Shown here: in pieces, positions 5,256 through 39,038 of the stretch
Layout: every line of letters starts with the position of its first letter
Numbering within the stretch: the stretch's first letter is position 1
Assembly (NCBI GenBank): GCA_947650285.1
Contig: CANTFL010001180.1
Span: forward strand, 1-64,000
DNA from: Hyaloperonospora brassicae
Lineage: Eukaryota > Oomycota > Peronosporomycetes > Peronosporales > Peronosporaceae
Direction of reading: 5' to 3'
DNA: 64,000 nt
Program-made: the position numbers and the translations under genes
Notes under the pieces: model-generated
What the model was told of the DNA's origin: nothing
The model's input: only the letters and a program-made list of their open reading frames with translations
The model's database searches: none

Positions 5256-5267
5256 CCTTCCCCCACC
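5256..5267 (-). promoter_or_regulatory. E1 polypurine tract
   Basis: On the minus strand this reads GGTGGGGGAAGG and abuts the 3' LTR, the position where plus-strand DNA synthesis is primed. Confidence 0.75.
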
Positions 5268-5363
5268 AGACTGACGTTTCCACATAACGTCAATCAAATT
5301 CTTTCCTCGAAGAGGACTGTGTGTGTGCGCTTCATCCTAACGGTTGGCAAAACACAAAACACC

Positions 5364-7644: not shown

Positions 7645-7755
7645 CCATTTGTATAGTTTGGGCCATCAATAGCATTGGCTCACGGAGCTATAGGTCTTCT
7701 CACGACCGAGATGTCCACTCAACGCAGTAATACGTGCCTCACAGAGGATCCGATT

Positions 7756-9522: not shown

Positions 9523-9525
9523 AAA

Positions 9526-10365: not shown

Positions 10366-10795
10366 TGGCTCGCGCCAATAGCGCTTTTGCTGCCCAGCGA
10401 AGCTGGGTCCATGACTCTTCTAACTTCACTCGAAACATTGCGCGTAGCGTCTAAGGTATTAGACCTCCAATCAATATGTGGTTCATGGCGTTCATGCCAA
10501 GCCTTGCCTAGGATGGGATCATATTTTAAATCCAAATCAAGGACACGGCAGAGTTCAATGCTTTCAAAGTCCAAAAATTCACACCTAAGTTTAACGGACC
10601 TTAAGGCACTGTGACGCGACTACCAGTCGCTAAACGAACGGTGATTGAATCACCCTCATGCGCTTTGAGCGCTTCAGCATATCGATGACTTCCCTCAAGG
10701 TAACGACGTCGAGAATAATTGCATGATGCTCCGGAGTCGATTAGGATCGACCAATGCTTCTCAAAGCCCTTAACTTTCGCCTCGAAGACTAACAA
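10362..10795 (-). pseudogene. E1 aspartic protease (broken)
   Basis: Minus strand 10601-10795 carries ILIDSGASCNYSRRRYLEGS with the catalytic D-S-G triad of retroviral-type proteases, followed by VRLATGSRVTVP. After an interruption, 10362-10574 continues with LDLDLKYDPILGKAWHERHE, which corresponds to the flap-to-ILG part of the fold. It would cleave Gag-Pol. The interruption makes it inactive. Confidence 0.85.
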
Positions 10796-10917
10796 GCTAG
10801 GCTTGTATCCACGCGCTGTGCTGGTGGGTACATAGCTCGGGTGGGCGAAGCCCTATTTCACTCTACCTCGTAGAGAAGCAACAGAACTCAGTTCTACCCC
10901 AGTAGGGCGCCCCGCGC

Positions 10918-11956
10918 CTACTGGGTGTCGACGTTTCCCCGTGCCATACCAGGTTTATGGTTATGGCTGGGGTTTCGACCCATAGGAGTCGGTTGTTGCT
11001 TCCGCAAAGGACAAGCGGGACGCAAGTGTTTAGTGCTTCCGCACATATAACAGCGTTTCACTTCCTGACGTTGCTCGGCAACATGAAGCTTCGATTCACC
11101 TTCATCTTCAGCATGGCTGAGATCCATCGGTTCTGGCTTACAGTAAGCCGAGGTGCTCGCAGAGGTCGCCCTCGCAAAGCTTGGGTTGTACCCATTCCAA
11201 CCAAGTCTGGCCGACTTGAAGTTGTGCTCAGCACTTTGAGCGATGCTAACAGCCTCCTCAAAAGTAGAGGGATGGACCCGAAACACCTCGGTCCTGGCAT
11301 CGCCAGTGCGAAGACCTTCCATGAAGATAGTCACACAGACTGTCTCAGGGAGAGGTCAGACTGCATAGCAGCCATAAGAGTTCTCAACTCCTGGACATAG
11401 TCCGTTAGCTCATTCTTACCCTGACGAGTATACAAGAAGCGTGAGCGCACGCGACAGGCCTGTTAGGCGGCGATAAAACTCGCAATAGGTCTAACTTGAG
11501 CGGGTCCCATGTGGGAAACGCCAAGTCGACCGACGTGCCGCACGTCAGAGCCCGTTCTCTAGCTCTTCCATCGAGCTTGGAGATAGCCAGCGATACTCGC
11601 TGATGCTCGACTGAGATCAAGCCAGATCTCATAGCCATCTCAATCTCACGGATCCAGAGGGTCAAGTTTTCCCCCTCCTTCCCGAAGTAATGTTTGACGT
11701 CCACCCAAAGGGGACGAGGCTTAGCCTCTTCTGGTGGCATCGCCACGTAGCGTGTTGGCATAGCCGACGCTACTTGGTTTTGAACCTGCTCTAAAAAGGC
11801 CGTTTCATACTGCATGAAGGCCTCGACTCGTGCATTGAGAACATCGGGACCTTGTGCAGCTAGAAACTCTACATACCCAAAGCCTACGACCGCGTTCAGC
11901 TTATCAAGCGCGACCTTTTGAGCCTCAGAGAGGGGTGTGGATTGCTCCATCCTCAC
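10918..11956 (-). pseudogene. E1 gag with CCHC zinc knuckle (frameshifted)
   Basis: The 5' part (11405-11956) begins MRMEQSTPLSEAQKVALDKL and includes the capsid-like DVKHYFGKEGENLTLWIREI segment. After a frameshift near 11450, frame 10918-11334 resumes with IFMEGLRTGDARTEVFRVHP and ends with a C-x2-C-x4-H-x4-C zinc knuckle (CYMCGSTKHLRPAC). Gag would form the particle and bind RNA. The order capsid-knuckle-protease fits Ty3/Gypsy. At least one frameshift disables it. Confidence 0.88.
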
Positions 11957-11992
11957 AGAGGAATATTCGTTACCGACTCAGGTGTAGATCGA

Positions 11993-12007
11993 CTACGAGT
12001 GCTACCA
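11993..12007 (-). promoter_or_regulatory. E1 primer-binding site
   Basis: Reads TGGTAGCACTCGTAG on the minus strand, 2 nt inside the 5' LTR. The TGGTAGC start is complementary to a tRNA 3' end GCUACCA, as in initiator-Met-primed elements; the exact tRNA is not established. Confidence 0.65.
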
Positions 12008-12009
12008 AA

Positions 12010-12544
12010 TGTAGCGGAGCTACACAGCTTCTTAAGTCAGAGGAAGACTTAACGCTCTTACGAGCAACTTAAGGTTCTTCGAACCCGACTCAAAGAGTCA
12101 ACAGCTCCGAGAGCTAAAGGGCGGTTCGAAGAACCCGACTCAAAGAGTCACACAAGCTCAAAGAGCTTACGGTCCCTGTTCGAGGGGGACCAAACGATTC
12201 AAAGAATCAAACGCACTGAGTGCACAAGGAGTAGCTGCCTTAACAAGGCGTTGCTTCTTCCTTACGATCGCAAGACGCCTCAGAGAGGCACGTTTCTTTT
12301 GTTGATCGAAATGGGAACTTAATTTAATTTCTTCTTTTAACCTAAAAGAACACCTTCGAACAACGTAGTTAACCTACTCACTTATGTCCAAAATAAACCT
12401 ATCAAAAGATCTTGTACCAATTGTTGACAGACATCAGTCTTCAACAATTGATACTTGTGTTCTAATATTACTTTAAAGGGGATGCTATCCCTTGTGTGTA
12501 CCACACCCATTGTCGACTACCAGTCGACGTGTAACGCCGTTACA
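12010..12544 (-). repeat. E1 5' LTR (right)
   Basis: 535 bp, about 98% alike to the left LTR by eye. Several differences fall in hairpin loops with stems intact: the loop of GGTTC/GAACC changes from AAG to GAA, and that of GCACT/AGTGC from A to G. Confidence 0.93.
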
Positions 12545-12548
12545 CAAA

Positions 12549-23338: not shown

Positions 23339-23475
23339 TGTAACGGGGCACCGACGACTACGTTCTGGTCAACCAGTACGGAGTTTACTATCACTGACTG
23401 TAGTGATAGTCAGTGCCCAGCTAGGTGTAGAACTACACAGAGGAAGATAGAACGACTAAGGTGAAAGACTTTAGT
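23339..23475 (-). repeat. E3 3' LTR, left fragment
   Basis: Matches 38597-38735 of the intact E3 LTR (GGGGCACCGACGACTACG, then TCACTGACTGTAGTGATAGT). It breaks at the TTAGT flank of E2 and continues at 31466. Confidence 0.9.
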
Positions 23476-23868
23476 TGTAACGGGGCAGCCCGTAACATTG
23501 AAATTTCCATTTGAGAGTTAATGACAACAAAGAATATTCTTTTGAATATTCTTTTGACAATATCACCAATAGTGGTGATATTGATGGGTCGACCAAAGAG
23601 TCTGCTCATTGGTTGATATCTTGTCGATATCAACCCACCAATCGCCGCAAGACGCGCGCAATGAGTGGTGACGAGACGTCACCATACACTCAGTTATATT
23701 AGCATAATTAAGTTAAGTCAAACATAGAGACAGTGGTTAAAGACTTAATTATATCAATATAATAGTTCTACTTTTACCTTATCTTCGCTTCCTCGTTTGC
23801 CTCGTGTACGTCTGTCGGGCGCACCGAAACACTTGCGTTAAGTTCACGCAAGGGTGTGCCCCGTTACA
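23476..23868 (+). repeat. E2 5' LTR
   Basis: 393 bp, TGTAACGGGG to CCCGTTACA. Contains several hairpins: GTAACGGGGCAGCCCGTAAC near its start, a CAATATCACCA/TGGTGATATTG pair and a GGTGACG/CGTCACC pair. Confidence 0.93.
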
Positions 23869-23870
23869 CC

Positions 23871-23885
23871 TGGTAGCACTTTGTA
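23871..23885 (+). promoter_or_regulatory. E2 primer-binding site
   Basis: TGGTAGCACTTTGTA begins 2 nt after the 5' LTR. The first nine bases are identical to the E1 and E3 sites, implying the same primer tRNA. Confidence 0.65.
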
Positions 23886-23912
23886 TTTCTTCCAAGGACC
23901 ACAACATCCAAC

Positions 23913-25066
23913 ATGAACATGTTGGATGGTGAAGACACCTTTCACGCCACGCGTGAAGGGTTTACCCATTTGAGTGACATCGAATTGGGTGCGGTAGAAC
24001 GAATGAGTTCTACCGTAGGCGAACTCGCCATCAGCGCCATGTTGGAGTCTCTAGACAGAGACCAACAACATGCCGCTATCGCCAAGTTCATTCAAAATGA
24101 ACTTGTCGCCGAAAGGGAGAAAGTAGCCTTGCTTCACCAGCAAGGCTCTCAACAGGCCGAGCAGTTGAAAGAACTCGGTGCTCAACAGACAGAGCTGTTG
24201 AGACAGCAGCAATTCCATGCTGCTGTGGGCGGGACGGCACATGCGCGTCGTCCCGAAGTCATGAAAGTTGACATCCCCAAATACAGTGGGGTCCTGGAAG
24301 ACTCCCTGTTACTATGATTTGTCGAACTCGACAGAGCCTTAAGGGCTCGTTGCGTCGAAGATGAGCAAATGAAACGCACATTTGCTCAAACCCACTTGGC
24401 AGGGCGTGCCAAAACTTGGTCCCTGGGGCTCGAGAGCAGTGATCCAAATGTGTTTAGGTCGCTAGATGACTTCAAGTCCCGGCTCAGACAAACGTTTGAG
24501 CCGCCACGGGCTGAGTTCAGGGCTCGTTAAGAGCTCCTGAAACTCAAGCAGGGTAAGCGTGATGTGCACGCTTACGCTCAACATATACGACTCCTCGCGA
24601 GTAGTATAACTGCTAACCCAGTACATGAACACACGTTGATTACGGTGTTCATGAAAGGGCTCGCAGAGGGGCCGTCAGGAGCCACCTGTTCCGCCTTGAG
24701 CTGAATACGCTGGAAGATGCGATATCAGCCGCGGAACAGGAAGACTTTAGCATGAGACAGGCTCATGCTAGCTCAAACTCTTATCGTCCACCGAGACGAC
24801 AAGAGATCGGAGGTCCAGAACCAATGGACCTCTGCTATGTTGAGAGCGAGAGACCTCGCTCTTCGAACAACAAGCGATTGCAGAGGTGCAATCGCTGTCA
24901 GAAGTTAGGGCACTACGCATACGAGTGTAGTGCTCCACGCCCAGTACCAAACAGTACTGAGCGAAATGGACGACCATTTGCCAGAAAGGGCAATGGGCGT
25001 GGGTCCAGCGCTGTTGCGAAGCCGCAACAGCGAGACGGACCATCAAAAAATGGTCGGGGTCAGTAG
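23913..25066 (+). pseudogene. E2 gag (stops and frameshift)
   Basis: Starts MNMLDGEDTFHATREGFTHL. A coiled, Q/E-rich capsid-proximal region runs to a TGA near 24315 that replaces a tryptophan codon still present in E3. After further breaks (TAA near 24528 and a shift near 24670), frame 24752-25066 carries GGPEPMDLCYVESERPR and a CCHC knuckle (CNRCQKLGHYAYEC). It would be the particle-forming, RNA-binding polyprotein. Many short inverted repeats lie within it, for example CAAGTTCATT/AATGAACTTG at about 24084-24106. Confidence 0.85.
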
Positions 25067-25116
25067 GGGCGGAGCGCCCTACTGATCCAGCAACCTCAAG
25101 AGAATTTGCAAATCTC

Positions 25117-26034
25117 TTGACGAAAGTTGCTCCAGATACACAATCATTGTGTGTCTCTGCACCTGGTGATGACGTTTCGCTCATCACCTTGAAGTTGGAA
25201 GCGACAAATGATTTGTCGCTTCGTGCCCTAGTAGACTGTGGGGCGTCGAACAACTTTGCTCGACGCCAGTCACTAGAGGGTCGTAGGCTCAAGTTCGTTG
25301 AGCGCGACATTCCCCTCACAAGGATGGCGGTGCGCCTTGCAACAGGCGCATCGATTACCGTTGAGAAACGTGTAGTAGGAATCCACTACACGTTAGAGGG
25401 CGAACAGTACGATGATGACTTCATCGTACTAGATCTGGATGACAAATTTGATGTCATCCTGGGATTACCTTGGCTCAGAAAGTACGAGCCAAGGGTGAGC
25501 TGGCAGCATCGATCCGTGAAGATGCCTGCCGCTTGTTCATCAGATGGCCATCTGATGAACATCTTGGAGCGTCCACAAGCGTGTGGATGTTCTGCGAGTG
25601 AGTGCGATGGCCTCACTTGCGGTACGGTCGTTAGCACGACTGCACAAGATCACAGTGTAGTTGATCACTACACTGTGGAGCAAGCTCCCGGCGGCTGTAC
25701 AGAAGTACAGGCTGCGCCGAAGGTCCACCACTCGAATAAGTCGAGTGGACCGGGACATGGATGCATGCCTAGCGGGCAGCATCTTAGAAGAAAGAAACCT
25801 GTTGCCCCCAAGGGGCAACATGAAAATCCTAGGTCGACTGGAGAGTCGACCGTAGAGGATCGGTGCCTGACTGTGGTTGCACAGCCACAGTCAGAAGACG
25901 TCGAGGGAATAAGTCCCCACGTACTTGAGGAAGAAATTCCTCAAGAGTCACTTGCTGAGGGATCAGGCCCTCAGCAACCTGTGGAAGCAAGTTTCCCAGG
26001 AAGAAATCGAGACGTTGAACGTCTTGGTCAATGA
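25117..26034 (+). pseudogene. E2 aspartic protease region
   Basis: A 305-codon frame with the protease active site ALVDCGASNNFARRQSLEG, where D-C-G replaces the usual D-S/T-G, then MAVRLATGASITV and DKFDVILGLPWLRKYEPRVSW. The rest is a low-conservation spacer. A frame change near 26000 separates it from RT, whose frame holds ETLNVLVNDGLSVGAYTLDL. E3 keeps the same D-C-G, so cysteine at the middle position is a family feature rather than a mutation of one copy. Twelve stems of 8 bp or more lie in 25331-25977. Confidence 0.85.
25331..25977. repeat. Dense run of perfect short inverted repeats inside coding sequence
   Basis: Stem pairs read directly (arm1/arm2): 25369-25376/25385-25392; 25406-25415/25421-25430; 25437-25444/25452-25459; 25468-25476/25486-25494; 25534-25547/25548-25561 (no loop); 25651-25661/25667-25677; 25728-25735/25741-25748; 25801-25808/25812-25819; 25832-25839/25844-25851; 25867-25876/25885-25894; 25924-25932/25937-25945; 25952-25961/25968-25977. 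Chance expectation for perfect stems of at least 8 bp with loops up to 10 nt is roughly 0.1 in this length. Confidence 0.9.
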
Positions 26035-28229
26035 TGGATTAAGCGTAGGCGCTTATACGCTTGATCTGATTGTGCCTCCGAAACTAACTTCGGAGATAAC
26101 TCAGTTGCCAACGCTAGAACCGAAACGGTTCTTGCGTGATCTGCGTAGTGGCAAAGTCAAGCAGATCTGCATACTCGTCACCGAGGACGAGTATGTGACC
26201 GATATTCGGTCGGCAACAGTTTTTGCTGAGACCGAACGGGTTCTCAGCAGCTCATCGATGGACGAAAGCGTCCTCGATGAGAAGACTCGGATTGAGCGAT
26301 ACATGTCTCAATCCTGGGAGTCACTTCAGGCAAATCCTTTGTATAAGGATTTGATCGAATTCAAGGGCGTATTCCCTGAATCCGTGCCATGCGAGTTGCC
26401 TAAGGACAAAGGCACTCAACACGAGATCGAGCTCAAGCCGGGCTCGAAGTACTGTGTCATGAAGCAGTGGCCACTGCCTCGTGAACAGGTGCTAGCGATC
26501 GACAAGCTCTTTGCCGATCGCTTAGCAGCGGTCCATGTGAGGGAATCAACATCCCCTCACAGCTCTTCGACCTTCTGTGTGCGAAAAGCCACAGGAGGAT
26601 GGCGGATAGTGCACGCATTCAGCAAGTTGAATGCTGCAACGGTACCGGTTCAGACGCCGATACCGAGAAAGGACGTAATCATAGATGGTATGTCAAAGAG
26701 TACCGTCTTCTCGTCCATGGATCTGGTGGACGGATTCTATCAGATCCTCATGCGTGAACGGGACATACCGTACATAGCAGTGAGTACCCCCAGCGGGATG
26801 CTGTGGGAGTGGCTAGTGATGCCACAGGGGCTGAGTAATGCCCCTGCAACATTCAACAGATATGTTACAAATCTGTTGAGACCGGTGCGAGACTTTGCAT
26901 CGAGTTACTTCGACGATGTGTTCGTCCATATCCGGGTTATGGACGGAAAGACGGACGTTGAAGTTCACAGCACTCACGTTCGTCAGGTTTTTCAACTTAT
27001 GCGCAAGCATAAGTTGTACGCCAACCTCAAGAAGTGTATATTCGCGGCTAGCGAAATACCACGTCTTGGGTGCATCGTGGGTAAACACGGCGTACGCCCT
27101 GATCCCGAAAAGATCAAGGCAATCACCGACTGGCCAGTGCCAGTCGATGTCAAGGGACTTTGTAAGATTTCTGGGGCTAGCGGCGTACTTTGCACAAGTA
27201 ACTCGCGCAACTACGCCGAGATGACTATGCATCTTTCTTCTTGCTCAAGAAAATGTGAAGTGGTCAAGGAACGCTGACCGTCAGCGCTCCTTTAACCGTA
27301 TTAAACAGAGCTTTATGCAATTGTCCATATTGGCGATTGCAGATCAGGACGGACCAGTTTATGTGGTCTGTGACGCCAGCAATTTTGCTATCGGCTGTGC
27401 GTTAATGCAGTATGACACAGATGGCGCAGAGCGCGTCGTCTATTATCAGTCGCGTCAGCTGCAAGCAGCTGAGCGTAATTACCCAGTGCATGACAAGGAA
27501 CTCCTTGCCATGAAGTACGCACTGGCTAAGTTCCGCGTCTATCTCTTGGGAGATAGACCGTTTATTGTCTACACGGACCATGCGTCATTACGCACGGCCG
27601 TAAACAGCCCACACCTCTCGCAAAGAATGGCGAGGTGGCTGTCTTTCTTCGCTGAGTATAACTTCTCCGTGGAGTATAAACCAGGACGACTAAACGTCGT
27701 CGCTGATGAGCTTTCGCGCCGGCCCGATTTCGAGCCGGACGCACAACCCAACATTGAGGATAAGCCCACTGTTGCGACACTGTCAGTCAGTGTCCCGTCG
27801 TCAAGTTTACTTGACGACGTACGAAAGGTATACGCAGAAGATAAGGATCTTCTCCGATTGATGAATCATCTGGTGAATCCATCCAGTAAATCAATGAGAG
27901 ATTTACCAGCTTTGTACCGATCCTCTTCGGATCGGTATAGTACACGCAACGGATTGCTGTACTATACAGCTGTTGCCGACGACACGCCTCGTGTCGTCGT
28001 ACCCGCTCATCATGATTTGCGTTTACGCATCATGTATGAGTGTCACGATGCCCCAACAGGCGGCCATCGTGGTAGAGAAAAGACTTACCTCACGGTAAGT
28101 CGTGACTTTTACTGGCCCCGCCAGTATCAGTTGGTACGCAAGTACATACGTGCTTGCGAGGTTTGTCGACGGGTGAAGCCTAGTCCTTCATCCCGTGCAC
28201 CATTGCAACCTCTGCCTGTTCCGACATAG
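25925..28229 (+). pseudogene. E2 reverse transcriptase-RNase H
   Basis: RT frame 25925-27277: SPHSSSTFCVRKATGGWRIV, LVDGFYQI, MPQGLSNAPATF and catalytic YFDD in SSYFDDVFVHIRV. It shifts frame near 27260 into RNase H (27255-28229) with VVCDASNFAIGCALMQYD, ELLAMKYAL, YTDHASL, LSQRMARWLSFFAEY and the ADELSRRPDF end. This is followed by the integrase zinc-binding HHCC-type segment (YECHDAPTGGHRGREKTYLT, CEVCRRVKPS). A TAG at 28227 replaces a GAG present in E3. The sequence from about 26285 to 27720 is almost identical to E3. Confidence 0.92.
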
Positions 28230-29143
28230 TGCTGGCAGTCCGTTTCTATGGACTTTGTCTTCGGATTCCCCGAAGACGCTCACAAGAATAATGGTATTCT
28301 TGTGTTTGTTGACCGATCTCAGCAAGATGGTCCATCTTGCTGCTGTACCCGAGTCGATCAAGGCTCAAGGTTGTGCTCGTGCCTTTCTCGACACGGTGTT
28401 TCGACTCCACGGGTTACCCCGTGAACTCGTATCCGACCGTGACCCTCGGTTCACGGCGGCATTTTGGCAAACCGTGTTCCGTACTCTCGGAACACGGTTG
28501 AAGATGTCCACTTCTGACCATCCCGAAACAGATGGTCAGACGGAACGTGCGAACCGTGTCCTCGAAGAGATCCTTCGAGGATATGTCGACTTCGTTTCCG
28601 AGTTGGATCAAATTCCTACCCACGGTGGAATTCGCCATCAATAATTTGGTGCATGCCTCAACACTGCACACCCCGTTTTACGTGAATGGCTTACGCCATC
28701 CACGTGTACCCGCCCTTCTAGAGTGTGACTCTTGGATAAGGGGGAGGGACTCGCTCGAGCAAAACCGTTTTGGCTCTTGCTCATCACGTGTCGACGCTAA
28801 CGTCGTCACGTATGATGCCGATGTCGATCAGGTCGACATCGATGAAGAAAATCACCTCAATAATAGCGGTGACGCTATTATTGACTCGGATAATGATGAC
28901 GATGCTGGGATGTTCATCATCGTCAACGATTATTCCAGCGAGGAAGTGGACAACCCCGCTGAAAAAGAGAACAATCTCTTAGCAGTGCGCACGAAGCGCA
29001 CTGAAAGACAAAACAAAGAGTCAGCAGAGAACTTCCTACTGACTCGAGAGGCGGTAGTCTGTTTCGTTCAGTACTCCATCGCAAATGCGGTGGACCGCCA
29101 GAAACGGAACGCAGACAAGAATGGAAGAGCAAATGTTCTTTAA
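28230..29143 (+). pseudogene. E2 integrase core with acidic insertion
   Basis: Core pieces in shifting frames: SMDFVFGFPEDAHKNNGILV, then LPRELVSDRDPRFTAAFW and MSTSDHPETDGQTERANRVL, then FAINNLVHASTLHTPFYVNG. Instead of running into the GPF module, a stretch of about 60 residues rich in D and E follows (DVDQVDIDEENHLNNSGD, DSDNDDDAGMF, SSEEVDNPAEKE), roughly 28810-28975. The frame ends at 29143 and the GPF region resumes around 29220-29255. E3 has the same insertion; E1 lacks it. Confidence 0.85.
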
Positions 29144-29254
29144 TTTAAGATTAATGACCTAGTACTACTGTCTACGGTAAACTTACCTGGACATGCAGTC
29201 ACTAGTGTCGGCAGTAGTAAACTACTGCCGAAGTACATTGGGCCATTTCGAGTA

Positions 29255-29962
29255 TTGTATCGCAAGGGCAATGCATACACGATCGAATTGCCACGTAAGA
29301 TGCGCACGCATCCTACGTTTTACGTGGGGAGGCTCAGGCCGTACTGTCAGTACGAGCCTTCTTCTTCCGATGAAGATAGCCCCCACGTTCAAGAACATCC
29401 ATCAAGTTCTTGCGTTCGCGCTCCAGACGATCCGTCTGGTCGCGCAGATAAGATACCTCGGATCTCAACCGAGATATCTCCCCGCGAGCTGTCGCCAGCT
29501 CGCCGAATAGGGAGCGGACATCCCGCTCGACCTGAAGCTGCGCTGTGGCATAATCGGCGCGGTCTCTCGTCCGATCAGCCTCGCGATCCTTGCGGTTCTT
29601 CCGCACGGTTTCGGTCAAAGCGTAGCGCCGGTCGCGCTCGTGCTTCAAGTCATCGCGCAATTCGTCGATTGCGCGATCCATCTCGTCAGGGTCGAGATGG
29701 TGGGCCTGGGTCTCTGGAGGAGGTCTTTCCTCCTCCATCACATCCTTTGGTGGGTGCTCACGGTGATCAACGCTTTCTAGTGGAGCGTATCTTGAACCAC
29801 CGTGACGATTCAGGATCAAGGACGAGCTACCTCGTCCAGTGGCGGGGGTATCCACCCTCTTGGAACAGCTGGGAGCCCCACTCCCAGCTGATGATGGATG
29901 TTGAAGGTCTCGTCCGCCAGTATGACGAGACCCATCCGATAGGTCCGAGGGCCCATCGGTAA
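29255..29962 (+). CDS. E2 pol C-terminus: GPF-type module, linker and chromodomain
   Basis: A 235-codon open frame: YRKGNAYTIELPRKMRTHPT, FYVGRLRPY, an R/S/P-rich linker of about 110 residues, then a chromodomain (FLVERILNHRDD, SYLVQWRGYPPSWNSWEP, ending VEGLVRQYDETHPI). The aromatic and tryptophan positions of the chromodomain core are present, so this part looks intact. The linker and chromodomain lie exactly opposite the coiled-coil half of the antisense ORF. The frame is the tail of an otherwise broken pol. Confidence 0.8.
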   Translation: MYRKGNAYTIELPRKMRTHPTFYVGRLRPYCQYEPSSSDEDSPHVQEHPSSSCVRAPDDPSGRADKIPRISTEISPRELSPARRIGSGHPARPEAALWHNRRGLSSDQPRDPCGSSARFRSKRSAGRARASSHRAIRRLRDPSRQGRDGGPGSLEEVFPPPSHPLVGAHGDQRFLVERILNHRDDSGSRTSYLVQWRGYPPSWNSWEPHSQLMMDVEGLVRQYDETHPIGPRAHR

Positions 29963-30940
29963 ACACGCACTTTTGGCGTTTGTAGACGGATTGCAAGTTT
30001 GCAATCGCGTCCCGCATCTCAGACGAGATGTGTGCTCTTCCCCAGGGAGAACTTAGGGAATACACGTCCCTATGTGCACGCTGCGAGTTGTCAACACAAC
30101 TCGCACAAGGGTCTCCCCATGTGAGGCAAGGAATGTCTGCCTCACTTGACCAACAGTGCGACCGGTACCTTGCACCGGTTGGTGTTCGCTTTTCAAACTT
30201 GAGGCGTACCGCCTCAAGTTTCTTAAGCCACCCTTCTCGTCCAAAATTCTGTACATTTTGGACGAACGCGTTCCACGCAGCCAAAAGCGATGCTTTGTCA
30301 CGCTTTAGGTTGCCATTGTAATATCGATGTCTAAGGAAGACATCGAGATAAATCTCTTCTTCAGCGCGAAAGTTTTTCTCGCTGGAACTCAAGCCGTGAA
30401 GCTCAGTCGCATCGAATAAAGGTATTCGATGGTGTCGGCTTGTCTCGTGGGACAAGCTATTGATGAGCCGTTCGGGCAAACACCCCCGCTTTAGCTCATC
30501 ACGCTTCGAAGTGGTACCTTTGTTGGTACCACGGCTCCCAGAATGACGACGGCTTGCACCATCGTCGCATCGTTCGTGCGAAGGTGCACGAGTTGATCGT
30601 GGTGATGAGTAGCCCGTCCTCATAACCGTACTTCATCATCACTGCCGAACAGACTGTGATGCATCTCAAGAGTCCGTTCGTTCGACAGTGGTCTTGGCGA
30701 ATACCGAGGCGTCGCCGGTGATCGAGACGCCTCTGGAACATTGCCCGAGTCAGACACGTCTGACTCGCCAGAGTAGATGACCTTAACGTCGAGGTCATCA
30801 TGCGCACGCGGTGTGGTACCGCGTGCACCTGCAGCACCTGTTGCTGCAGGCGGAGAAGGAGCAGCAGACGACGAATCGTATGCCGCAGAGGCTGGCACAG
30901 CAGCGAACTGTGCGGGTCTTGAGTCCATTTGCACAGACAT
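29334..30940 (-). pseudogene. E2 antisense ORF (aORF), one frameshift
   Basis: Minus-strand frame opposite to pol, starting at ATG 30940, 131 bp inside the 3' LTR. The first 106 codons (acidic, A/S-rich; IYSGESDVSDSG, HSLFGSDDE) end at a frameshift near 30620 and continue as a 429-codon frame to 29334. The middle part (HRIPLFDATELHGLSSSEKN, AAWNAFVQNVQNFGREGWLK) looks globular and is almost identical to E3. The last 120 residues are a strong heptad-type coiled coil (DELRDDLKHERDRRYALTET; LRSEVSYLRDQTDRLERER). No membrane segment, signal peptide or known domain is seen. It overlaps the sense chromodomain over its whole length. Function unknown. Confidence 0.65.
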
Positions 30941-31059
30941 GTTAACTATGCGAGGTCAAGTGGAAAGTGAATGGAACGGACCCAACAAGTGCTCCCTGTT
31001 CCAATGGTCCCCAACGGGTGTCCGCCATATTTTTAATAGTCACATGGTGCATATCAGTT

Positions 31060-31070
31060 AAGGGGGGTGA
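31060..31070 (+). promoter_or_regulatory. E2 polypurine tract
   Basis: AAGGGGGGTGA directly before the 3' LTR, the expected plus-strand priming site. Confidence 0.75.
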
Positions 31071-31465
31071 TGTAACGGGGCAGCCCGTAACATTGAAATT
31101 TCCATTTGAGAGATAAAGACAACAAAGAATATTCTTTTGAATATTCTTTTGACAATATCACCAATAGTGGTGATATTGATGGGTCGACCAAAGAGTTCTG
31201 CTCATTGGTTGATATCTTGATCGATATCAACCCACCAATCGCCGCAAGACGCGCGCAATGAGTGGTGACGAGACGTCACCATACACTCAGTTATATTAGC
31301 ATAATTAAGTTAAGTCAAACATAGAGACAGTGGTTAAAGACTTAATTATATCAATATAACAGTTCTACTTTTACCTTATCTTCGCTTCCTCGTTTGCCTC
31401 GTGTACGTCTGTCGGGCGCACCGAAACACTTGCGTTAAGTTCACGCAAGGGTGTGCCCCGTTACA
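31071..31465 (+). repeat. E2 3' LTR
   Basis: 395 bp, near-identical to 23476-23868 with about three substitutions and two 1-base insertions. Confidence 0.93.
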
Positions 31466-31776
31466 CTAGTCGTAGAAAAAGTAAAACTGTTATTAATATA
31501 ATTAAGTCCTATAACTCTTGTATCTCTGTTTGTCTTGACTTGATTATACTAATGTAACTATATGTATGATGACGTCTACTCACCACCCATTGCGCGCGTC
31601 TAGCAGCGATTGGTGGGTTGAAATTATCGCTATATCAACCAATGAGTAGACCCTTCGGTCATCTTCAAGCACTATCATCTGACTCTGTGATACTGTTGAA
31701 AGAATATTCAACGTAATATTCTCTATTGTCAATTTCTTCTTAAGACAATTTTTATGTAACGGGCTACCCCGTTACA
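31466..31776 (-). repeat. E3 3' LTR, right fragment
   Basis: Continues the LTR broken at 23475, matching 38731-39038. Starts with the duplicated CTAGT and ends CGGGCTACCCCGTTACA, a hairpin on its own. Confidence 0.9.
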
Positions 31777-31904
31777 TCAACCCTTCCTTAACTGATAGTC
31801 ACCATGTGACTATCGAAACATTATGGCCACCCGTTGGATGCCAACGGGATAGGAGTATTTGTTGGTCAGATTCATTCATTCTGACTTTGCCTCGCATAGA
31901 TAAC

Positions 31905-33113
31905 ATGTCTATGCGGGGTGAACCAACGACGACACAGCCTGTTGCTGCGCCCGCCTCTGCGGCAGACAACTCGTCGTATGCTGCTAGTTCTCAGTCTGCA
32001 GCAGTTGTTGCTGCAGGCGTATGTGGTATCGCACCTCATGCACACAGTGACCCCGAGTTAGGGGTCAGCTACTCTGGCGAGTCAGATTTGTCTGACTCGT
32101 AAAAGCCTTTAGAGTCATCGCGTTCACCTGCGGTGCCTCGTCCATCAAGAGACGTGCCTAAAGCACGGACTCGCGACATGCGTCACAGTCTGTTCGGTAG
32201 TGATGATGAATTAGGTTATGAGACGGGCTACTCATCACCACGATCAACTCGTGCACCTTCGCACGAACGATGCGACGATGGTGCAAGCCGTCGTCATTCT
32301 GGGAGCCGTGGTACCAACAAAGGTACCACTTCGAAGCGTGATGAGCTAAAGCGGGGGTGTTTGCCCGAACGGCTCATCAATAGCTTGTCCCACGAGACAA
32401 GCCGACACCATCGAATACCTTTATTCGATGCGACTGAGCTTCACGGCTTGAGTTCCAGCGAGAAAAACTTTCGCGCTGAAGAAGAGATTTATCTCGATGT
32501 CTTCCTTAGACATCGATATTACAATGGCAACCTAAAGCGTGACAAAGCATCGCTTTTGGCTGCGTGGAACGCGTTCGTCCAAAATGTACAGAATTTTGGA
32601 CGAGAAGGGTGGCTTAAGAAACTTGAGGCGGTACGCCTCAAGTTTGAAAAGCGAACACCAACCGGTGCAAGGTACCGGTCGCACTGTTGGTCAAGTGAGG
32701 CAGACATTCCTTGCCTCACATGGGGAGACCCTTGTGCGAGTTGTGTTGACAACTCGCAGCGTGCACATAGGGACGTGTATTCCCCAAGTTCTCCCTGGGG
32801 AAGAGCACACATCTCGTCTGAGATGCGGGACGCGATTGCAAACTTGCAATCCGTTTACAAGCGCCAAAAGCGCGTGTTTACCGATGGGCCCTCGGACCTA
32901 TCGGATGCGTCTCGGCATACTGGTGAACGAGATCTTCTACGTCAGCCATCAGCTGGAATCGAGGTTACCAGCTGTCATACGATGGTAATTAACCACGCCA
33001 GTGGACAAGGTGACTTGTCCGTTCCACATTCTTCACGCAGTGGCTCAATATACGCTTCACGTGAAATCGGTGACCACCGTGAGAATCCACCAGTGGTTCC
33101 GGTGGCGGTGTAA
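31905..33113 (+). pseudogene. E3 antisense ORF (aORF), one in-frame stop
   Basis: Plus-strand frame starting at ATG 31905, 129 bp inside the E3 3' LTR, opposite to E3 pol. It is open to 33113 except for one TAA at 32100-32102, 402 codons in all. Residues corresponding to 32215-32900 are nearly identical to the E2 aORF; the start and the C-terminus differ. A downstream piece at 33153-33341 (LTELRVEVDHEYDLRHDLLA, SEREKHRLRDELE) resembles the coiled-coil end of the E2 protein and is probably the displaced tail. It overlaps the broken chromodomain on the minus strand. Confidence 0.62.
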
Positions 33114-33560
33114 ATACAAGGTCCGGCTCAACCGCTGGGCCTGCAGGGGACTTTGGTTAACCATTGGCGTTACCTGACCGAGTTGAGGGTGGAAGTCGAT
33201 CACGAATACGATCTTCGGCACGACCTGCTGGCGACCGTACAGCTTCTCCGTACCTATCAGGAGAAAGACCGATCGGATTCCGCGTTCTTTCAACTCGAGA
33301 GTGAACGCGAGAAGCATCGTTTGCGCGACGAGCTAGAGTAGTCTCGTCGCAAGACCGCGTCGCTAAAGGACCAACTTGAGTGTTTGGTCCGTAATCACAA
33401 GAATCATTTGGGGATTCTGGAGCGTGCCGGCTGTCTCCGTTCTCGCGAGAGGCCCTATACTGAAAGTACGGGCGGAGACGACCAACATAGAACGTAGGAT
33501 GCGTGCGCATCCTGTGAGGCAACTCAATCGTGTATGCATTGCCCTTGCGGTGCAACACAA
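32900..33560 (-). pseudogene. E3 pol C-terminus and broken chromodomain
   Basis: Frame 33157-33558 carries RKGNAYTIELPHRMRTHPTF and YVGRLRPYF with a diverged linker. A chromodomain remnant follows in about 32930-33090 (RFHVKRILSHCV, LVHWRG, then a stop where E2 has tyrosine). Stops in the domain show it is not maintained in this copy, while the opposing aORF stays open across the same bases. Confidence 0.75.
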
Positions 33561-33666
33561 TAAAGGGACCAATGTATTTCGGTAGTAGTTTACTACTGCC
33601 AACATTAGTGGTTACATGTCCAGGTAAGTTTACCGTAGACAGTAGTACTAGGTCATTAATCTTAAA

Positions 33667-34616
33667 TTAAAGAACATTTGCTCTTCCATTCTTGTCTGCG
33701 TTCCGTTTCTGGCGGTCCACCGCATTTGCGATGGAGTACTGAACGAAACAGACTACCGCCTCTCGAGTCAGTAGGAAGTTCTCTGCTGACTCTTTGTTTT
33801 GTCTTCCAGTGCGCTTCGTGCGCACTGCTAAGAGATTGTTCTCTTTTTCAGCGGGGTTGTCCACTTCCTCGCTGGAATAATCGTTGACGATGATGAACAT
33901 CCCAGCATCGTCATCATTATCCGAGTCAATAATACCGTCACCGCTATTATTGAGGTGATTTTCTTCATCGATGTCGACCTGATCGACATCGACATCAAAC
34001 GTATCGGCATTTGAGATGATACGTGATGAGCAAAAGCATAAACGGTATTTGCTCGAGCGAGTCCCTCCCCCCCAACCCAGAGTCACTCTGTATAAGGGCG
34101 GGTACGCGTGGATGGCGTAAGACATTCACGTAAAAAGGGGTGTGCAGTGTTGAGGCATGCACCAATTTATGGATGGCAAATTCCACCGTGGGTAGGAATT
34201 TGATCCAACTCGAAAAGAAGTCGACGTATCCTCGGAGAATTTTTTCGAGGACACGATTTGCACGTTCCGTCTGACCATCTATTTCGGGATGGTCAGAAGT
34301 GGACATCGTCAACCGTGTTCCAAGAGAACGGAACACGGTTTGCCAAAATGCCGCCGTGAATCGAGGGTCACGGTCGGATACGAGTTCACGGGGTAATCCG
34401 TGAAGTCGAAACACTGTGTCGAGAAAGGCACGAGCACAACCTTGAGCTTTGATCGACTCGGGTACAGCAGCAAGATGGACCATCTTGCTGGGATCGGTCA
34501 ACAAACACAAGAATACCATTATTCTTGTGAACGTCTTCGGGGAATCCGAAGACAAAGTCCATAAAAACGGACCCCCAACACTCTACCGAGGCTTGGCAGA
34601 GGTTGTAATGGCGCAC
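33667..34616 (-). pseudogene. E3 integrase (broken)
   Basis: Minus-strand pieces: SVECWGSVFMDFVFGFPEDV, LPRELVSDRDPRFTAAFW, MSTSDHPEIDGQTERANRVL, then FYVNVLRHPRVPAL and the acidic insertion (DVDQVDIDEENHLNNSGDGI). The last portion (33667-33990) is almost identical to E2. Frame changes occur near 34560 and 34020. Confidence 0.85.
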
Positions 34617-34627
34617 GGGATGAAGGG

Positions 34628-35555
34628 CTAGGCTTCATTCGTTGACAGACTTTGCAAGAACGAATGTATTTGCGCACGAATTGATACTGGCGGGGCCAGC
34701 AAAAGTTGCGACTTAACGTAAGGTAGGTCTTTTTCTACCACGATGTCCGCCTGAGGGCGCATTGTGACATTCGAACATGGTGCGTAAACGCAAATCATCA
34801 TGATCGGGACCGACGACGCGACGTGTATCGTCAGCAACTGTTGTGTAGTACAGCAGGCCATTGCGAGTCGTATACCGATCAAACGAGGAACGGTATAGAG
34901 CCGGTAAATCCGACAAGAATTTCCGGAATGAGTTCGCAAGGTGACCCATCAAACGAAGGAGAATCATATCCCCTTCTTATGCCTTACGCACGTCATCGAC
35001 TAACGGCGATGACGGCACACTGACTAACAGTGCCGCAACAGTGGGTAAGGCCTCACTGTTGGCCCGAGTTGTCGGCTCGAAATCGGGCCGACGTGATAGC
35101 TCATCAGCGACGACGTTTAGTCGTCCTGGTTTATACTTCACGGAGAAGTTATACTCAGCGAAGAAAGACAGCCACCTCGCAATTCTTTGCGCGAGGTGGG
35201 GACTGTTTACGGCCGTGCGTAATGACGCATGGTCCGTGTATACGATGAACGGTCTATCTACGAGGAGATAGACGCGGAACTTAGCCAGTGCGTACTTCAT
35301 GGCAAGGAGTTCCTTGTCATGCACTGGGTAATTACGCTCAGCTGCTTGCAGCTGACGCGACTGATAATAGACGACGCGCTCTGCGCCATCTGTGTCATAC
35401 TGCATTAACGCACAGCCGATAGCAAAATTGCTGGCGTCACAGACCACATAAACTGGTCCGTCCTGATCTGCAATCGCCAATATGGACAATTGCATAAAGC
35501 TCTGTTTAATACGGTTAAAGGAGCGCTGACGGTCAGCGTTCCTTGACCACTTCAC
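34628..35555 (-). pseudogene. E3 RNase H and integrase zinc region (broken)
   Basis: Frame 34977-35555 shows VVCDASNFAIGCALMQYD, ELLAMKYALAKF and YTDHASL. Frames 34628-34967 hold the remains of the zinc-binding region, shifted several times. The segment right of about 35095 is nearly identical to E2, the part left of it clearly diverged. Confidence 0.85.
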
Positions 35556-35614
35556 ATTTTCTTGAGCAAGAAGAAAGATGCATAGTCATCTCGGCGTAGT
35601 TGCGCAGTTACTTG

Positions 35615-37462
35615 TTAAAGTACGCCGCTAGCCCCAGAAATCTTACAAAGTCCCTTGACATCGACTGGCACTGGCCAGTCGGTGATTGCCTTGATCTTTT
35701 CGGGATCAGGGCGTACGCCGTGTTTACCCACGATGCACCCAAGACGTGGTATTTCGCTAGCCGCGAATATACACTTCTTGAGGTTGGCGTACAACTTATG
35801 CTTGCGCATAAGTTGAAAAACCTGACGAACGTGAGTGCTATGAACTTCAACGTCCGTCTTTCCGTCCATAACCCGGATATGGACGAACACATCGTCGAAG
35901 TAACTCGATGCAAAGTCTCGCACCGGTCTCAACAGATTTGTAACATATCTGTTGAATGTTGCAGGGGCATTACTCAGCCCATGTGGCATCACTAGCCACT
36001 CCCACAGCATCCCGCTGGGGGTACTCACTGCTATGTACGGTATGTCCCGTTCACGCATGAGGATCTGATAGAATCCGTCCACCAGATCCATGGACGAGAA
36101 GACGGTACTCTTTGACATACCATCTATGATTACGTCCTTTCTCGGTATCGGCGTCTGAACCGGTACCGTTGCAGCATTTAACTTGCTGAATGCGTGCACT
36201 ATCCGCCATCCTCCTGTGGCTTTTCGCACACAGAAGGTCGAAGAGCTGTGAGGGGATGTTGATTCCCTCACATGGACCGCTGCTAAGCGGTCGGCAAAGA
36301 GCTTGTCGATCGCTAGCACCTGTTCACGAGGCAGTGGCCACTGCTTCATGACACAGTACTTCGAGCCCGGCTTGAGCTCGATCTCGTGTTGAGTGCCTTT
36401 GTCCTTAGGCAACTCGCATGGCACGGATTCAGGGAATACGCCCTTGAATTCGATCAAATCCTTATACAAAGGATTTGCCTGAAGTGACTCCCAGGATTGA
36501 GACATGTATCGCTCAATCCGAGTCTTCTCATCGATGACGCCTTCGTTCATAGATGAACTGCTGAGAACCCGTTCGGTCTCAGTAAAAAACGTTGCCGACC
36601 GAATATCGATGACGTACTGGTCCTGCGGTAATAGTGCACAGATCTGCTTGACTTTGCCAATGCACAGAGCACGCAAGAACCGTTTCGGTTCTAGCGTTGG
36701 CAATTGAGTTATCTACGAAGTTAGTTTTGGAGGCACAACCAGATCAAGCGTGTAAGCGCCTACGCTTAATCCATCATTGACCAAGACATGCAGTGTCTCG
36801 ATGACCTCCTGGGAACTCGCTTTCACAGGATCTGGGTTAGCTTTCTCCACAATGTAGTGATCATTTACATTGTGTTCTTGTACAGTCGTGCTAACGACCG
36901 TACCACAAGTGAGGCCATCGCACTCACTCGTAGTACACCCACGTGAGTGTGGGCGTTTCAAGATATTCGCCAGGTGGTTATCTGAGGAACAAGTGGCAGG
37001 CATCGTAACCGATCGATACTGCCAACTCACCCTTGGCTCGTATATCCTGAGCCAAGGCAACCCTAAGATGACGTCGAACTTGTCATCCAGGTCAAGCACG
37101 ATGAAATTATTATCGTACTGTTCCCCTTTTAACGTGTAGTGGATTCCGACTACACGTTTCTTCACATTGATCGATACGCCTGTCGCTAGGCGCGCCGTCA
37201 ATCGCGTTGGAGGGATCTCCTGCTCCATGAAGTTGAACCTTCCTGCCTCTATCGACTGGCGACGAGCAAAATTGTTCGACGCCCCACAGTCAACTAGGGC
37301 GCGAAGTGACAAGTCCTTTGTCACTTCCAATATCAAGAGGATGAGAGACACCTCATCACCAAGTGCAGAGACACACATGGACTGCGTGTCGGGAGCAACC
37401 TTCATCAAGAGATTTGCAAATTCTCTTGATGTTGCTGGATCAGTAGGGCGCTCCGCCCCCAC
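35615..37462 (-). pseudogene. E3 protease-reverse transcriptase, single nonsense codon
   Basis: Protease frame 36713-37462 (ALVDCGASNNFARRQSIEAG, DKFDVILGLPWLRIYEPRVS) and RT frame 35615-36703 (LVDGFYQI, MPHGLSNAPATF, SSYFDDVFVHIRV) are in one frame, separated only by a TAG where E2 has GAG. This shows protease and RT are one polyprotein in the family. The RT part right-bounded at about 36540 is nearly identical to E2; the protease part is about 80% alike by eye. Confidence 0.88.
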
Positions 37463-37541
37463 TGACCCCGACCATATTTTGATGGTTGGTCTCGCTGGTG
37501 CGACTTTGCAACAGCATCGGACCCTCGCCCTCCAGCTCTTC

Positions 37542-38546
37542 TTACTGGTGGATGATTACTGCGCTCAGCACCACGAGGTTCCGAGTGGGGATACTGCATT
37601 CATATGCGTGGTGTTCCAGTTTATGACAGCGATGGCATCTCACCGATCGCTTGTCATTCGCAGGGCGAGGTTTCTCGCCCTCGACATTACAGAGGTCCAT
37701 TGGCTCTGGACCTCCGACCGCTGATCGTATCTGCGGACGAAAGGGGGTCAGCGTAGTGTGAGCCTGTTTCATACTAAAGTCTTCCTGCTCCGCAGCGAAG
37801 ATTTCTTCGGAGAGCGTCTTTAGCTCTCCGCGGAACAGGTGGTCCCTGACGGGACCATCGGACAGTCCATGATTGAATATTGTGATCAACATAAATTCAC
37901 TTACAGGGCTCACTACCATGCAGCTTGCAAGGTAGTGTACATGCTGAGCGTAAGCGTGAACCTTACGTTTACCCTGTTTGATTCCGAGGAGTTCAGATAG
38001 TGTCCTGAACTCTGCCCTGATAGGCTCAAACGTCTCGCTGAGCAGGGTCTTGAAGATCCTCAACGACCCAAACACGTTTGGGTCGTGCAACTTGAGATTC
38101 AGGGCTCAATTCCTGGCGTCCCCTGACAAGTACGACTGAGCGAATGAAACTTGCATTCGCTCATCGTCGACTTCGACGAACCACCTTAACAGGGAGTCGT
38201 CCTCGACTCCGTGAATATTGGAGATCTCTAGCTTTAGAGACCCCGGTAGACGCTCCCGTGTCGACTGCGCGGACTGAGACTGCCTCAGTTCTTCGTTCCG
38301 CTGTTGATCTTGTTGTTGCAACAAGGTCACCTGCGCTCGCGACTCATCAAGTTCTCGTTGCAAGAGCTTGCTAATGACGGTATGCTGCTGGTCTCTACCC
38401 CCTGTGGATAGCATGGCCCAGATTGCTATTTCGCCAACAGTCGAACTCATTCGTTCGATCGCACTCCATTCGATATCGCTCAAATGGGAGTAGCTTTCAC
38501 GGGTTCCGTGAAATTTTTTGCCTTCGACTTCGTCCAACATGTTCAT
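37542..38546 (-). pseudogene. E3 gag (stops)
   Basis: Frames 38106-38546 and 37542-38090 are in the same frame, parted by a TGA that replaces TGG of a tryptophan. It begins MNMLDEVEGKKFHGTRESYS and contains HDPNVFGSLRIFKTLLSETF and GGPEPMDLCNVEGEKPRP with a knuckle lacking one ligand (CHRCHKLEHHAYEC: E replaces the usual G). Much more diverged from E2 gag than RT is from E2 RT. Confidence 0.82.
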
Positions 38547-38579
38547 GTTGGGCGATGCGAGTGTGGTCCTTGGACGGAC

Positions 38580-38594
38580 TACAAAGTGCTACCA
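38580..38594 (-). promoter_or_regulatory. E3 primer-binding site
   Basis: Minus strand TGGTAGCACTTTGTA starts 2 nt after the 5' LTR, identical to the E2 site. Confidence 0.65.
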
Positions 38595-38596
38595 GG

Positions 38597-39038
38597 TGTA
38601 ACGGGGCACCGACGACTACGTACTGGTCAACCAGTACGGAGTTTACTATCACTGACTGTAGTGATAGTCAGTGCCCAGCTAGGTGTAGAACTACACAGAG
38701 GAAGGTAGAACGACTAAGGTGAAAGACTCTAGTCGCAGGAAAAGTAAAACGGTTATTAATATAATAAAGTCCTATACATCTTCTATCTCTGTTTGTCCTG
38801 ACTTAATTATACTAATGTAACCAAATGTATGGTGACGTCTACTCACCACCCATTGCGCAGTTCTAGCAGCGATTGGTGGGTTGACATTATCACGATATCA
38901 ACCAATGAGTAGACCCTTCGGTCATCTTCAACAATATCATCATGCTCTGTGATACTGTTGAAAGAATATTCAACGTAATATTCTCTATTGTCATTTTATC
39001 CTTAGTGACAATATCATGTAACGGGCTACCCCGTTTCA
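38597..39038 (-). repeat. E3 5' LTR (right, intact)
   Basis: 442 bp with the hairpin end GTAACGGGCTACCCCGTTTC. The last T of the inverted terminal motif is mutated compared with 31771-31776. Uninterrupted homolog of the split left LTR. Confidence 0.9.

What the first reader, a model, noticed from the sequence alone, without database searches (positions are those of the whole stretch)
24084..28883. Retrotransposon coding sequence saturated with perfect short hairpins
In E2 (and E3) gag-pol, perfect inverted repeats recur every 30-50 bases. In 25331-25977 alone I count twelve stems of 8-14 bp with loops of 0-8 or 9 nt, where about 0.1 is expected by chance (about 11 loop sizes times 4 to the minus 8 per position). 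More occur in the integrase: 28257-28264/28270-28277, 28281-28290/28295-28304, 28320-28330/28332-28342 (11 bp, 1-nt loop), 28470-28481/28488-28499 (12 bp), 28513-28522/28531-28540, 28858-28868/28873-28883. They lie inside codons for conserved motifs. E1 encodes the same integrase motif (GQTERxNR, near 7240) without a hairpin, and MIPS and importin-alpha lack such a pattern, so protein constraint does not explain it. I know of no described element with this design. Possible causes: selection on genomic RNA folding (packaging, protection from Dicer, translation control), or a mutational process that perfects imperfect palindromes during reverse transcription or repair.
Basis: partly seen in the sequence, partly recalled or inferred. 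Interest (0 to 1): 0.88.

Follow-up and report, generated by a model that had tools for sequence, protein, structure and literature searches.

The report
Retrotransposons packed with perfect short hairpins
A group of jumping genes in a downy-mildew genome has its whole sequence, genes included, filled with short perfect hairpins whose size differs by family and which tend to stay paired as the sequence changes, a design that I met in none of the papers my searches listed.

Summary
E2 (23476-31466) holds 81 perfect stems of 8 bp or more with loops of 0-10 nt, against 1.15 in shuffles; E3 holds 55 against 0.75. Codon-preserving shuffles do not explain it. LTRs, gag, pol and 3' region are all affected. 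The 41 E2-family loci measured the same way carry 7.6-13.3 stems/kb; 30 other RT loci carry 0-0.8.

E2, L039 and L040 use spans of about 21-23 nt. Distant gypsy families, other RT loci and host DNA show no such saturation.

In the one family tested, shared variants at silent sites are about 3 times rarer in stems than outside, while private mutations hit both alike. Between E2 and E3, pairs change on both sides and stay paired. G-U is not favoured over A-C. One-arm overwriting was not detected. Best reading: selection for Watson-Crick hairpins that fold on both strands. The benefit is unproven; hindering duplex formation and small-RNA silencing is my first guess.

The parts
23476..31466 (+). 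E2, Ty3/gypsy-type LTR element saturated with perfect hairpins (81 stems of 8 bp or more; mean span about 23 nt)
23476..23869 (+). E2 5' LTR, 98.7% identical to the 3' LTR; 4 stems of 8 bp or more
31071..31466 (+). E2 3' LTR; 4 stems of 8 bp or more
25117..26034 (+). aspartic protease frame (RVP_2), the densest hairpin stretch (16 stems/kb in 25101-25912)
25925..27277 (+). reverse transcriptase frame (RVT_1)
27255..28229 (+). RNase H and integrase zinc-binding frame
25534..25561 (.). longest stem: 14 bp, no loop
28513..28540 (.). hairpin over the HPETDGQ codons of the integrase; the same axis is a perfect hairpin of other sequence in families L039 and L040
28320..28342 (.). hairpin over the SKMVHLA codons; same axis in L039
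29334..30623 (-). antisense open frame (429 aa) between pol and the 3' LTR, with 25 homologues in the protein database
31467..39038 (-). E3, older relative in opposite orientation (LTRs about 31463-31776 and 38726-39038, 89.5% identical); 55 stems of 8 bp or more
4717..12545 (-). E1, gypsy element of a related family with 13-nt hairpins (5 bp + 3 nt); the supposed control
23339..23475 (+). fragment 98% identical to 38597-38733 of E3; holds two further overlapping stems

Best explanation
E2, E3, E1 and their relatives belong to one clade of Ty3/gypsy elements whose whole sequence is under natural selection to contain many short, local, perfectly Watson-Crick hairpins of a family-specific size: 13 nt in the E1/L041 family, about 21-24 nt in the E2, L039 and L040 families. 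SHOWN here: the arrays exist in all four families of this clade that I read, and no comparable saturation exists in the other families read; in the one family with enough copies, stem sites are constrained in shared variants, silent sites included, but not in private ones; between E2 and E3 pairs are kept by compensatory change; positions mostly turn over between families while the design stays. INFERRED: because pairing is strictly Watson-Crick, what counts is folding of both polarities (sense RNA together with antisense RNA or minus-strand cDNA), since a G-U pair folds on one strand only. INFERRED and least certain: the benefit is that single strands which fold on themselves do not readily form intermolecular duplexes. 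They are thus poor substrates, guides and targets for small-RNA silencing, while the stems (14 bp at most in E2) stay too short to be diced.
For: Excess over dinucleotide and codon-preserving shuffles. Shared variants: stems 8/518 = 1.5%, loops 12/147 = 8.2%, outside 155/3018 = 5.1% with stems defined in E2 and variants counted in the other 29 copies (p = 9e-5); private variants 12.2% in stems against 11.1% outside (p = 0.5). Four-fold sites with stems from L062: 4.1% against 14.7%, p = 0.001. Eight slid versions give 3.1-5.9% instead of 1.5%. E2-E3 divergent blocks: stems 17.9%, loops 28.5%, outside 28.3% diverged; 35 of 46 axes keep all but at most two pairs. Pairs changed on both sides are Watson-Crick in 21 of 37, against 39 of 139 in six slid controls. 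Clade restriction and two size classes. G-U: in L041 and E1 perfect 5-pair palindromes number 110 and 137 against 15.9 and 22.8 expected, while versions with one G-U stay at 23 (24.8 expected) and 38 (34.5). Fold energy is equally in excess on both strands: E2 -10.5 and -10.2 kcal/mol per 100 nt. An antisense frame with homologues lies in the 3' region. Phytophthora transposon small RNAs are mainly 25/26 nt (passages of PMC3804510); 68 of 81 E2 spans are 26 nt or less.
Against: E2 stems show no preference for stable (G+C-rich) pairs, although pure stability selection might leave one. A length-GC trade-off appears only in old copies (E2, E3, E1), not in young ones, so I do not count it. The constraint test rests on one family. 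At first and second codon positions stems and outside do not differ for any of four reference copies, and at four-fold sites E2 as reference gives p = 0.09. Other pairs are mixed: L041 against L046 no difference; L039 stems against L080 even reversed (5/228 against 24/2091); L045 stems against L044 no difference, though L044 stems against L045 give 1.3% against 4.5%; L041 stems against E1 p = 0.051, E1 stems against L041 p = 0.0009. L040's stems are no more conserved in L039 than the rest (33.4% each). In E2-type families stems with one G-U are in excess too, like those with one A-C (E2: 47 and 71 against about 5), and L039 has G-U 11 to A-C 8. Among transmitted changes A-C is somewhat commoner than G-U, which hints at the minus strand (p = 0.04, post hoc). 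Nothing here tests silencing.
Confidence: 0.48

Rival explanations
1. Templated mutation: a polymerase (the element's reverse transcriptase, or host replication) copies a nascent strand onto itself and so creates and re-perfects hairpins; no function is needed.
For: All-or-none Watson-Crick pairing without G-U preference and, in E2, with background base composition is what copying gives. Such events are described to create and maintain perfect stems (PMC8794818; abstract and first part of the Results read). Positions turn over between families. Of 11 L062 stems with two or more changes in E2, 7 have them in one arm only, one of these with 5 changes.
Against: No significant arm asymmetry in 12 family comparisons (lowest permutation P 0.051, lowest P against pseudo-hairpins 0.14). 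Haplotypes at one stem form a graded series, although recombination between copies could also give this. Compensations are 24 transitions to 6 transversions, against 489:410 outside and 80:53 for one-sided stem changes. E2, which looks recently transposed (LTRs 98.7% alike), has 28 stems where L062 has 46, so passage through reverse transcription did not re-perfect them.
Confidence: 0.17
2. Sense-strand RNA structure for packaging: the hairpins are dispersed signals for the family's own Gag, which would explain why each family has its own size.
For: Family-specific geometry. The E1/L041 hairpins prefer outer G-C and inner pyrimidine-purine pairs. Dispersed packaging signals are known in RNA viruses (PMC6281560, search listing only).
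Against: G-U is not favoured over A-C in E2, E3, L062 or L040. E2 hairpins show no loop motif beyond a first-base A/T preference. The LTR and antisense-frame regions carry as many stems.
Confidence: 0.15
3. Reverse-transcription architecture: the hairpins act in minus-strand cDNA, with a size set by the element's reverse transcriptase.
For: Transmitted A-C (a G.T pair on the minus strand) exceeds G-U relative to private changes (47:28 against 27:35, p = 0.04). The ~13 bp between the polymerase and RNase H sites of Ty3 RT (PMC5371799 passage) equals the 13-nt span of the E1 family.
Against: The match in size may be chance and leaves 21-24 nt unexplained. The A-C signal is post hoc, includes decay of E3, and is not significant for shared variants alone (11:6 against 27:35, p = 0.17).
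Confidence: 0.12
4. Protein sequence, codon usage or chance produces the palindromes.
For: The three axes that the E2 family shares with L039 or L040 sit on conserved codons, two of them (SKMVHLA, HPETDGQ) near-palindromic also in L041.
Against: Codon-preserving and dinucleotide shuffles; the same density in LTRs and 3' region; no such saturation in L042, L043, L047, seven other RT loci or four host stretches.
Confidence: 0.01

Closest known systems
Genome-scale ordered RNA structure (GORS) of RNA viruses
   Same: pervasive folding-energy excess along a whole coding genome
   Different: here discrete hairpins of one size class per family, strictly Watson-Crick and equal on both strands, in an LTR retrotransposon. 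GORS is described from recall; (GORS with retrotransposon) listed five papers, none of which I opened
Template-switch mutation and quasi-palindrome correction (PMC8794818)
   Same: gives perfect short hairpins and compensatory changes
   Different: significant one-armed change was not found; here constraint at silent sites and a graded haplotype series
Dispersed packaging signals of RNA viruses (PMC6281560, listing only)
   Same: many stem-loops of similar geometry over a coding genome
   Different: no shared loop motif in E2 and no G-U preference
Sirevirus palindromic repeated motifs (PMC2829016, passages)
   Same: palindromic units in an LTR retrotransposon
   Different: those are repeats of a motif with a CGG-CCG core in the LTR and at the env gene; here the stems differ in sequence and lie also inside gag and pol
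miRNA-like structures in maize transposable elements (PMC10760457, abstract)
   Same: local secondary structure common in transposable elements and tied to small RNAs
   Different: those resemble pre-miRNA loci; here stems are perfect and at most 14 bp in E2

Membership tests
Ty3/gypsy LTR retrotransposon | long terminal repeats | tested here: met
   23476-23869 and 31071-31466, 98.7% identical
Ty3/gypsy LTR retrotransposon | order protease, RT, RNase H, integrase | tested here: met
   RVP_2, RVT_1, RT_RNaseH and Integrase_H2C2 in this order; the integrase core was not scanned as a Pfam domain, but that stretch matches the related families by tblastn
Ty3/gypsy LTR retrotransposon | 5-bp target-site duplication | not tested
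   insertion borders were not resolved
Genome-scale ordered RNA structure | folding-energy excess over shuffles along the genome | tested here: met
   -10.5 kcal/mol per 100 nt in E2, about 0 in four host stretches
Genome-scale ordered RNA structure | RNA-type pairing in which G-U counts as a pair | tested here: not met
   G-U no commoner than A-C in E2, L062 and L040, and at background in E1 and L041; L039 has G-U 11 to A-C 8
Template-switch hairpins | multi-base change confined to one arm | tested here: not met
   no significant arm asymmetry in 12 comparisons; among 11 stems with two or more changes in E2, 7 have them in one arm and 4 in both
Dispersed packaging signals | shared loop motif | tested here: inconclusive
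   E2 shows only a first-loop-base preference; E1/L041 show closing- and outer-pair preferences
Dispersed packaging signals | binding by the capsid protein | not testable with these tools
   needs protein and RNA
Sirevirus-type palindromic motifs | repeats of one conserved sequence | tested here: not met
   stems differ in sequence

The most novel reading that the evidence does not exclude
A clade of oomycete gypsy elements has evolved a both-strand hairpin code: its entire sequence is selected to fold, in sense RNA, antisense RNA and cDNA alike, into perfect hairpins whose size is set by the family. This would be a cis-acting defence against duplex-based silencing written over the protein code, in elements of which at least the E2 family also carries an antisense gene.
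Probability: 0.25. Interest if true: 0.92.

Novelty: new variant of a known kind. Interest (0 to 1): 0.78.

Why it matters
A transposon would carry a second, structural message over its whole length, with clear constraint at silent sites. If it hinders silencing, it gives a directly testable case of escape from RNA interference by folding rather than by a suppressor protein. If it is a copying artefact of reverse transcription, it would be a very clear footprint of that process. The family-specific hairpin size (13 against 21-24 nt) is a ready handle for finding the molecule that reads it.

Tried and rejected
Stability set-point: stem length and G+C are anticorrelated in E2, E3 and E1 (rho -0.44, -0.33, -0.31) but not in young copies or other families (L062 -0.09, L045 -0.10, L041 -0.16, L039 -0.24, L040 +0.14, all p of 0.1 or more), so decay may explain it. 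The null used for energy spread is biased: chance hairpins give RNA SD ratios of 0.85-0.91. I do not use this as evidence.

RNA versus DNA energies do not discriminate, because chance hairpins show a difference in the same direction.

Even spacing: only L040 is more regular than random (gap CV 0.58 against 0.96); the six other rows are not.

Relatives elsewhere: two scans each of viral and of prokaryote contigs found none. I had no DNA of other oomycetes, so spread beyond this genome is known for proteins only (best 120 of 1151 hits seen).

Papers: ten searches, of which some aimed at mechanisms. Judged by titles and abstract starts, none of the listed papers describes such arrays in retrotransposons. 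Lists were cut at 8-20 papers, and most subscription papers are not in the library.

Structure prediction of the antisense protein: machine busy twice.
Full report
WHAT IS THERE. The window lies in a contig of a 100.6-Mb genome. A host protein (inositol-3-phosphate synthase) is 93% identical to those of Hyaloperonospora arabidopsidis and Peronospora matthiolae, so the host is probably a downy mildew close to these. E2 (23476-31466, + strand) is a Ty3/gypsy-type element with LTRs 98.7% alike and frames for protease, RT, RNase H and integrase zinc domain. E3 (31467-39038, - strand) is an older relative with LTRs 89.5% alike. E1 (4717-12545, - strand) belongs to another family.

THE COUNT. Perfect stems of 8 bp or more with loops of 0-10 nt: E2 81 (shuffles 1.15), E3 55 (0.75), E1 5 (1.15), two flanks 1 and 1 (1.5 and 3.0). 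The twelve stems of 25331-25977 and the integrase stems are at the stated places. In E2 the excess fades at loops of 10-14 nt and is near chance beyond. Density is similar in LTRs (10.2 and 10.1/kb), leader and gag (11.4), protease (16.0), RT (8.4), RNase H-integrase (7.5) and 3' region (10.5). Codon-preserving shuffles give 0.04-0.50 stems per E2 stop-free segment where 2-18 are seen.

SPREAD. Other copies of the family: L001-L008 10.8-13.3/kb, L044, L045 and L048 9.0-12.8, L049-L078 7.6-12.5. These 41 loci partly overlap, and L001 and L049 are E2 itself. L079 is a further copy. 30 loci fetched by the RVT_1 family have 0-0.8/kb; two reach 0.8, L017 and L034, and L034 contains an E2-like LTR piece. 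Gypsy families L040 (65-68% identical in aligned nucleotides) and L039 have 5.2 and 3.0/kb. The search for the RNase H-integrase piece listed 150 places, its limit, all 94% or more identical, many with open frames over 1,300 aa, so the family looks young.

TWO SIZE CLASSES. The expected control is not clean. L041, L046 and E1 have few long stems but a large excess of 5-6 bp stems: L041 126 of 5 bp or more against 33.8; E1 51 hairpins of 5 bp with a 3-nt loop against 5.2. Their spans peak at exactly 13 nt (29 of 113, 31 of 108, 58 of 187), whereas E2, L040 and L039 average 23.4, 21.4 and 23.1 nt. In L040 and L039 stem and loop lengths compensate each other (rho -0.61 and -0.76), in E2 weakly (-0.23), in E1 and L041 not significantly. 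Distant gypsy families L042 and L043, L047, seven other RT loci and four host stretches show no such saturation; L042 has a mild excess at spans of 11 and 13 nt. On the RT tree E1, L041 and L046 form one clade (support 95/100), L039, L040 and L080 another (99/100) and the E2 family a third (83/65); all three carry arrays, the two distant rows do not. E1 is about 91% identical to L041, so the 13-nt class is one family.

CONSTRAINT. In 30 copies of one 3.7-kb stretch, variants seen in one copy only fall about equally on stems, loops and other sites. Variants shared by copies avoid stems. The result holds with stems defined in a single copy left out of the count: with E2 as reference, 8/518 in stems, 155/3018 outside, 12/147 in loops; the other three references give p = 1e-7 to 7e-6. 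At four-fold sites it holds for three of four reference copies (4.1-4.9% against 13-15%, p = 0.001-0.02); for E2 as reference p = 0.09. In the last part of the stretch, beyond the first frame (not split by codon position, and partly coding), it holds for three of four (p = 0.014-0.03); for L050 p = 0.49. At first and second codon positions stems and outside do not differ (p = 0.13-0.85). Eight slid controls give 3.1-5.9% in place of 1.5%. Three diverged copies (E2, L050, L056) have private changes in stems almost as often as outside (0.026 against 0.031 per site), in line with decay. Pairwise tests in other families are few and mixed (see evidence against).

PAIRS ARE KEPT. E2 and E3 are mosaics: some 400-column blocks are 98-100% alike, others 56-78%. 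In the divergent 100-nt blocks stems differ at 17.9% of sites and loops and other sites at 28%, and 35 of 46 axes keep all but at most two pairs. Pairs changed on both sides are Watson-Crick in 21 of 37, against 39 of 139 in six slid controls, p = 0.0017. 24 of 30 compensations (stems of 7 bp or more in either element) are transitions, against 489 of 899 changes outside, p = 0.005, and 80 of 133 one-sided changes in stems. Across families the places mostly turn over: L039 and L040 share 5 axes (0.05 expected), while the E2 family shares 2 with each (0.09-0.17 expected), three different axes in all, on conserved codons. L040's stems are as diverged in L039 as the rest of the sequence.

WHICH STRAND. 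In E1 and L041 perfect 5-pair palindromes are 6-7 times in excess while versions with one G-U or one A-C stay near background (0.7-1.3 times); other single mismatches range from 0.3 to 1.8 times. In E2 single-mismatch stems hold A-C 11 and G-U 4. Counted over nested registers, both are in excess in E2 (A-C 71, G-U 47 against about 5), L062 and E3, are equal in L045 (35 and 36), and in L039 G-U leads (11 to 8). Among shared stem variants with L062 as reference there are G-U 6, A-C 11, other 10 and Watson-Crick 1, against private 35, 27, 43 and 8. A structure needed only in sense RNA should tolerate G-U better than A-C. The folding excess is alike on both strands. I conclude that both polarities matter or that the acting molecule is DNA; a slight A-C excess hints at the minus strand (p = 0.04, post hoc).

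NOT TEMPLATED COPYING. If one arm were copied from the other, one arm should carry most changes relative to other families. In 12 comparisons the asymmetry is not significantly larger than in permutations (lowest P 0.051) or pseudo-hairpins (lowest P 0.14). Between L062 and E2, 24 stems differ; of 11 with two or more changes, 7 have them in one arm and 4 in both, and one has 5 in one arm. At that stem, the 24-nt palindrome L062 718-741, the haplotypes form a graded series from five differences to none; recombination could contribute to this. E2 itself, apparently recently transposed, has 28 stems where L062 has 46.

FUNCTION. What selects for the arrays is inferred. The 3' region holds an antisense frame of 429 aa with 25 homologues, for example 50% identity over 96% of its length; antisense transcripts are therefore plausible but not shown. 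In Phytophthora 25/26-nt small RNAs come mainly from transposable elements (PMC3804510). Self-folding of both strands would slow duplex formation between sense and antisense RNA and mask targets and guides. Against stability as the only criterion, E2 stems have the base composition of the element, which fits a threshold that 8-10 bp already pass. The E1/L041 hairpins favour an outer G-C and an inner pyrimidine-purine pair, L040 an outer G-C and an inner purine; this is unexplained.

LIMITS. One genome, one family with enough copies for the constraint test, no expression data, and no DNA of other oomycetes. The statement that no description was found rests on ten searches of open papers, of which I saw the listings.

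Noticed in passing
29334-30623 (-) and 32133-33113 (+): Antisense protein frame in the 3' region of E2 and E3: conserved central domain and a basic coiled-coil-like tail, no Pfam family over its cut-off; homologues in Peronospora matthiolae, Hyaloperonospora brassicae and unnamed ENA contigs.
   Followed up: partly
4717-12545 and L041: The 13-nt hairpins have a weak palindromic consensus G N N T Y - NNN - R A N N C; no reason known.
   Followed up: partly
L040 (G000:C42:989100-993099): Hairpins are spaced more evenly than random (gap CV 0.58 against 0.96, none of 3,000 simulations as low).
   Followed up: no
25978-29352 and 33458-36829: E2 and E3 are mosaics of nearly identical and strongly diverged blocks, as after recombination between lineages.
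   Followed up: partly
from 54774 to beyond 55196: Tandem array of an 8-base unit (52 registered copies counted).
   Followed up: no
9908-10148: Tandem pair of a 120-base unit inside E1.
   Followed up: no
898-931: Isolated 13-bp perfect stem with an 8-nt loop outside the elements.
   Followed up: no
1846-3564 (+) and 48667-50460 (+): DNA photolyase-like gene and inositol-3-phosphate synthase gene.
   Followed up: partly
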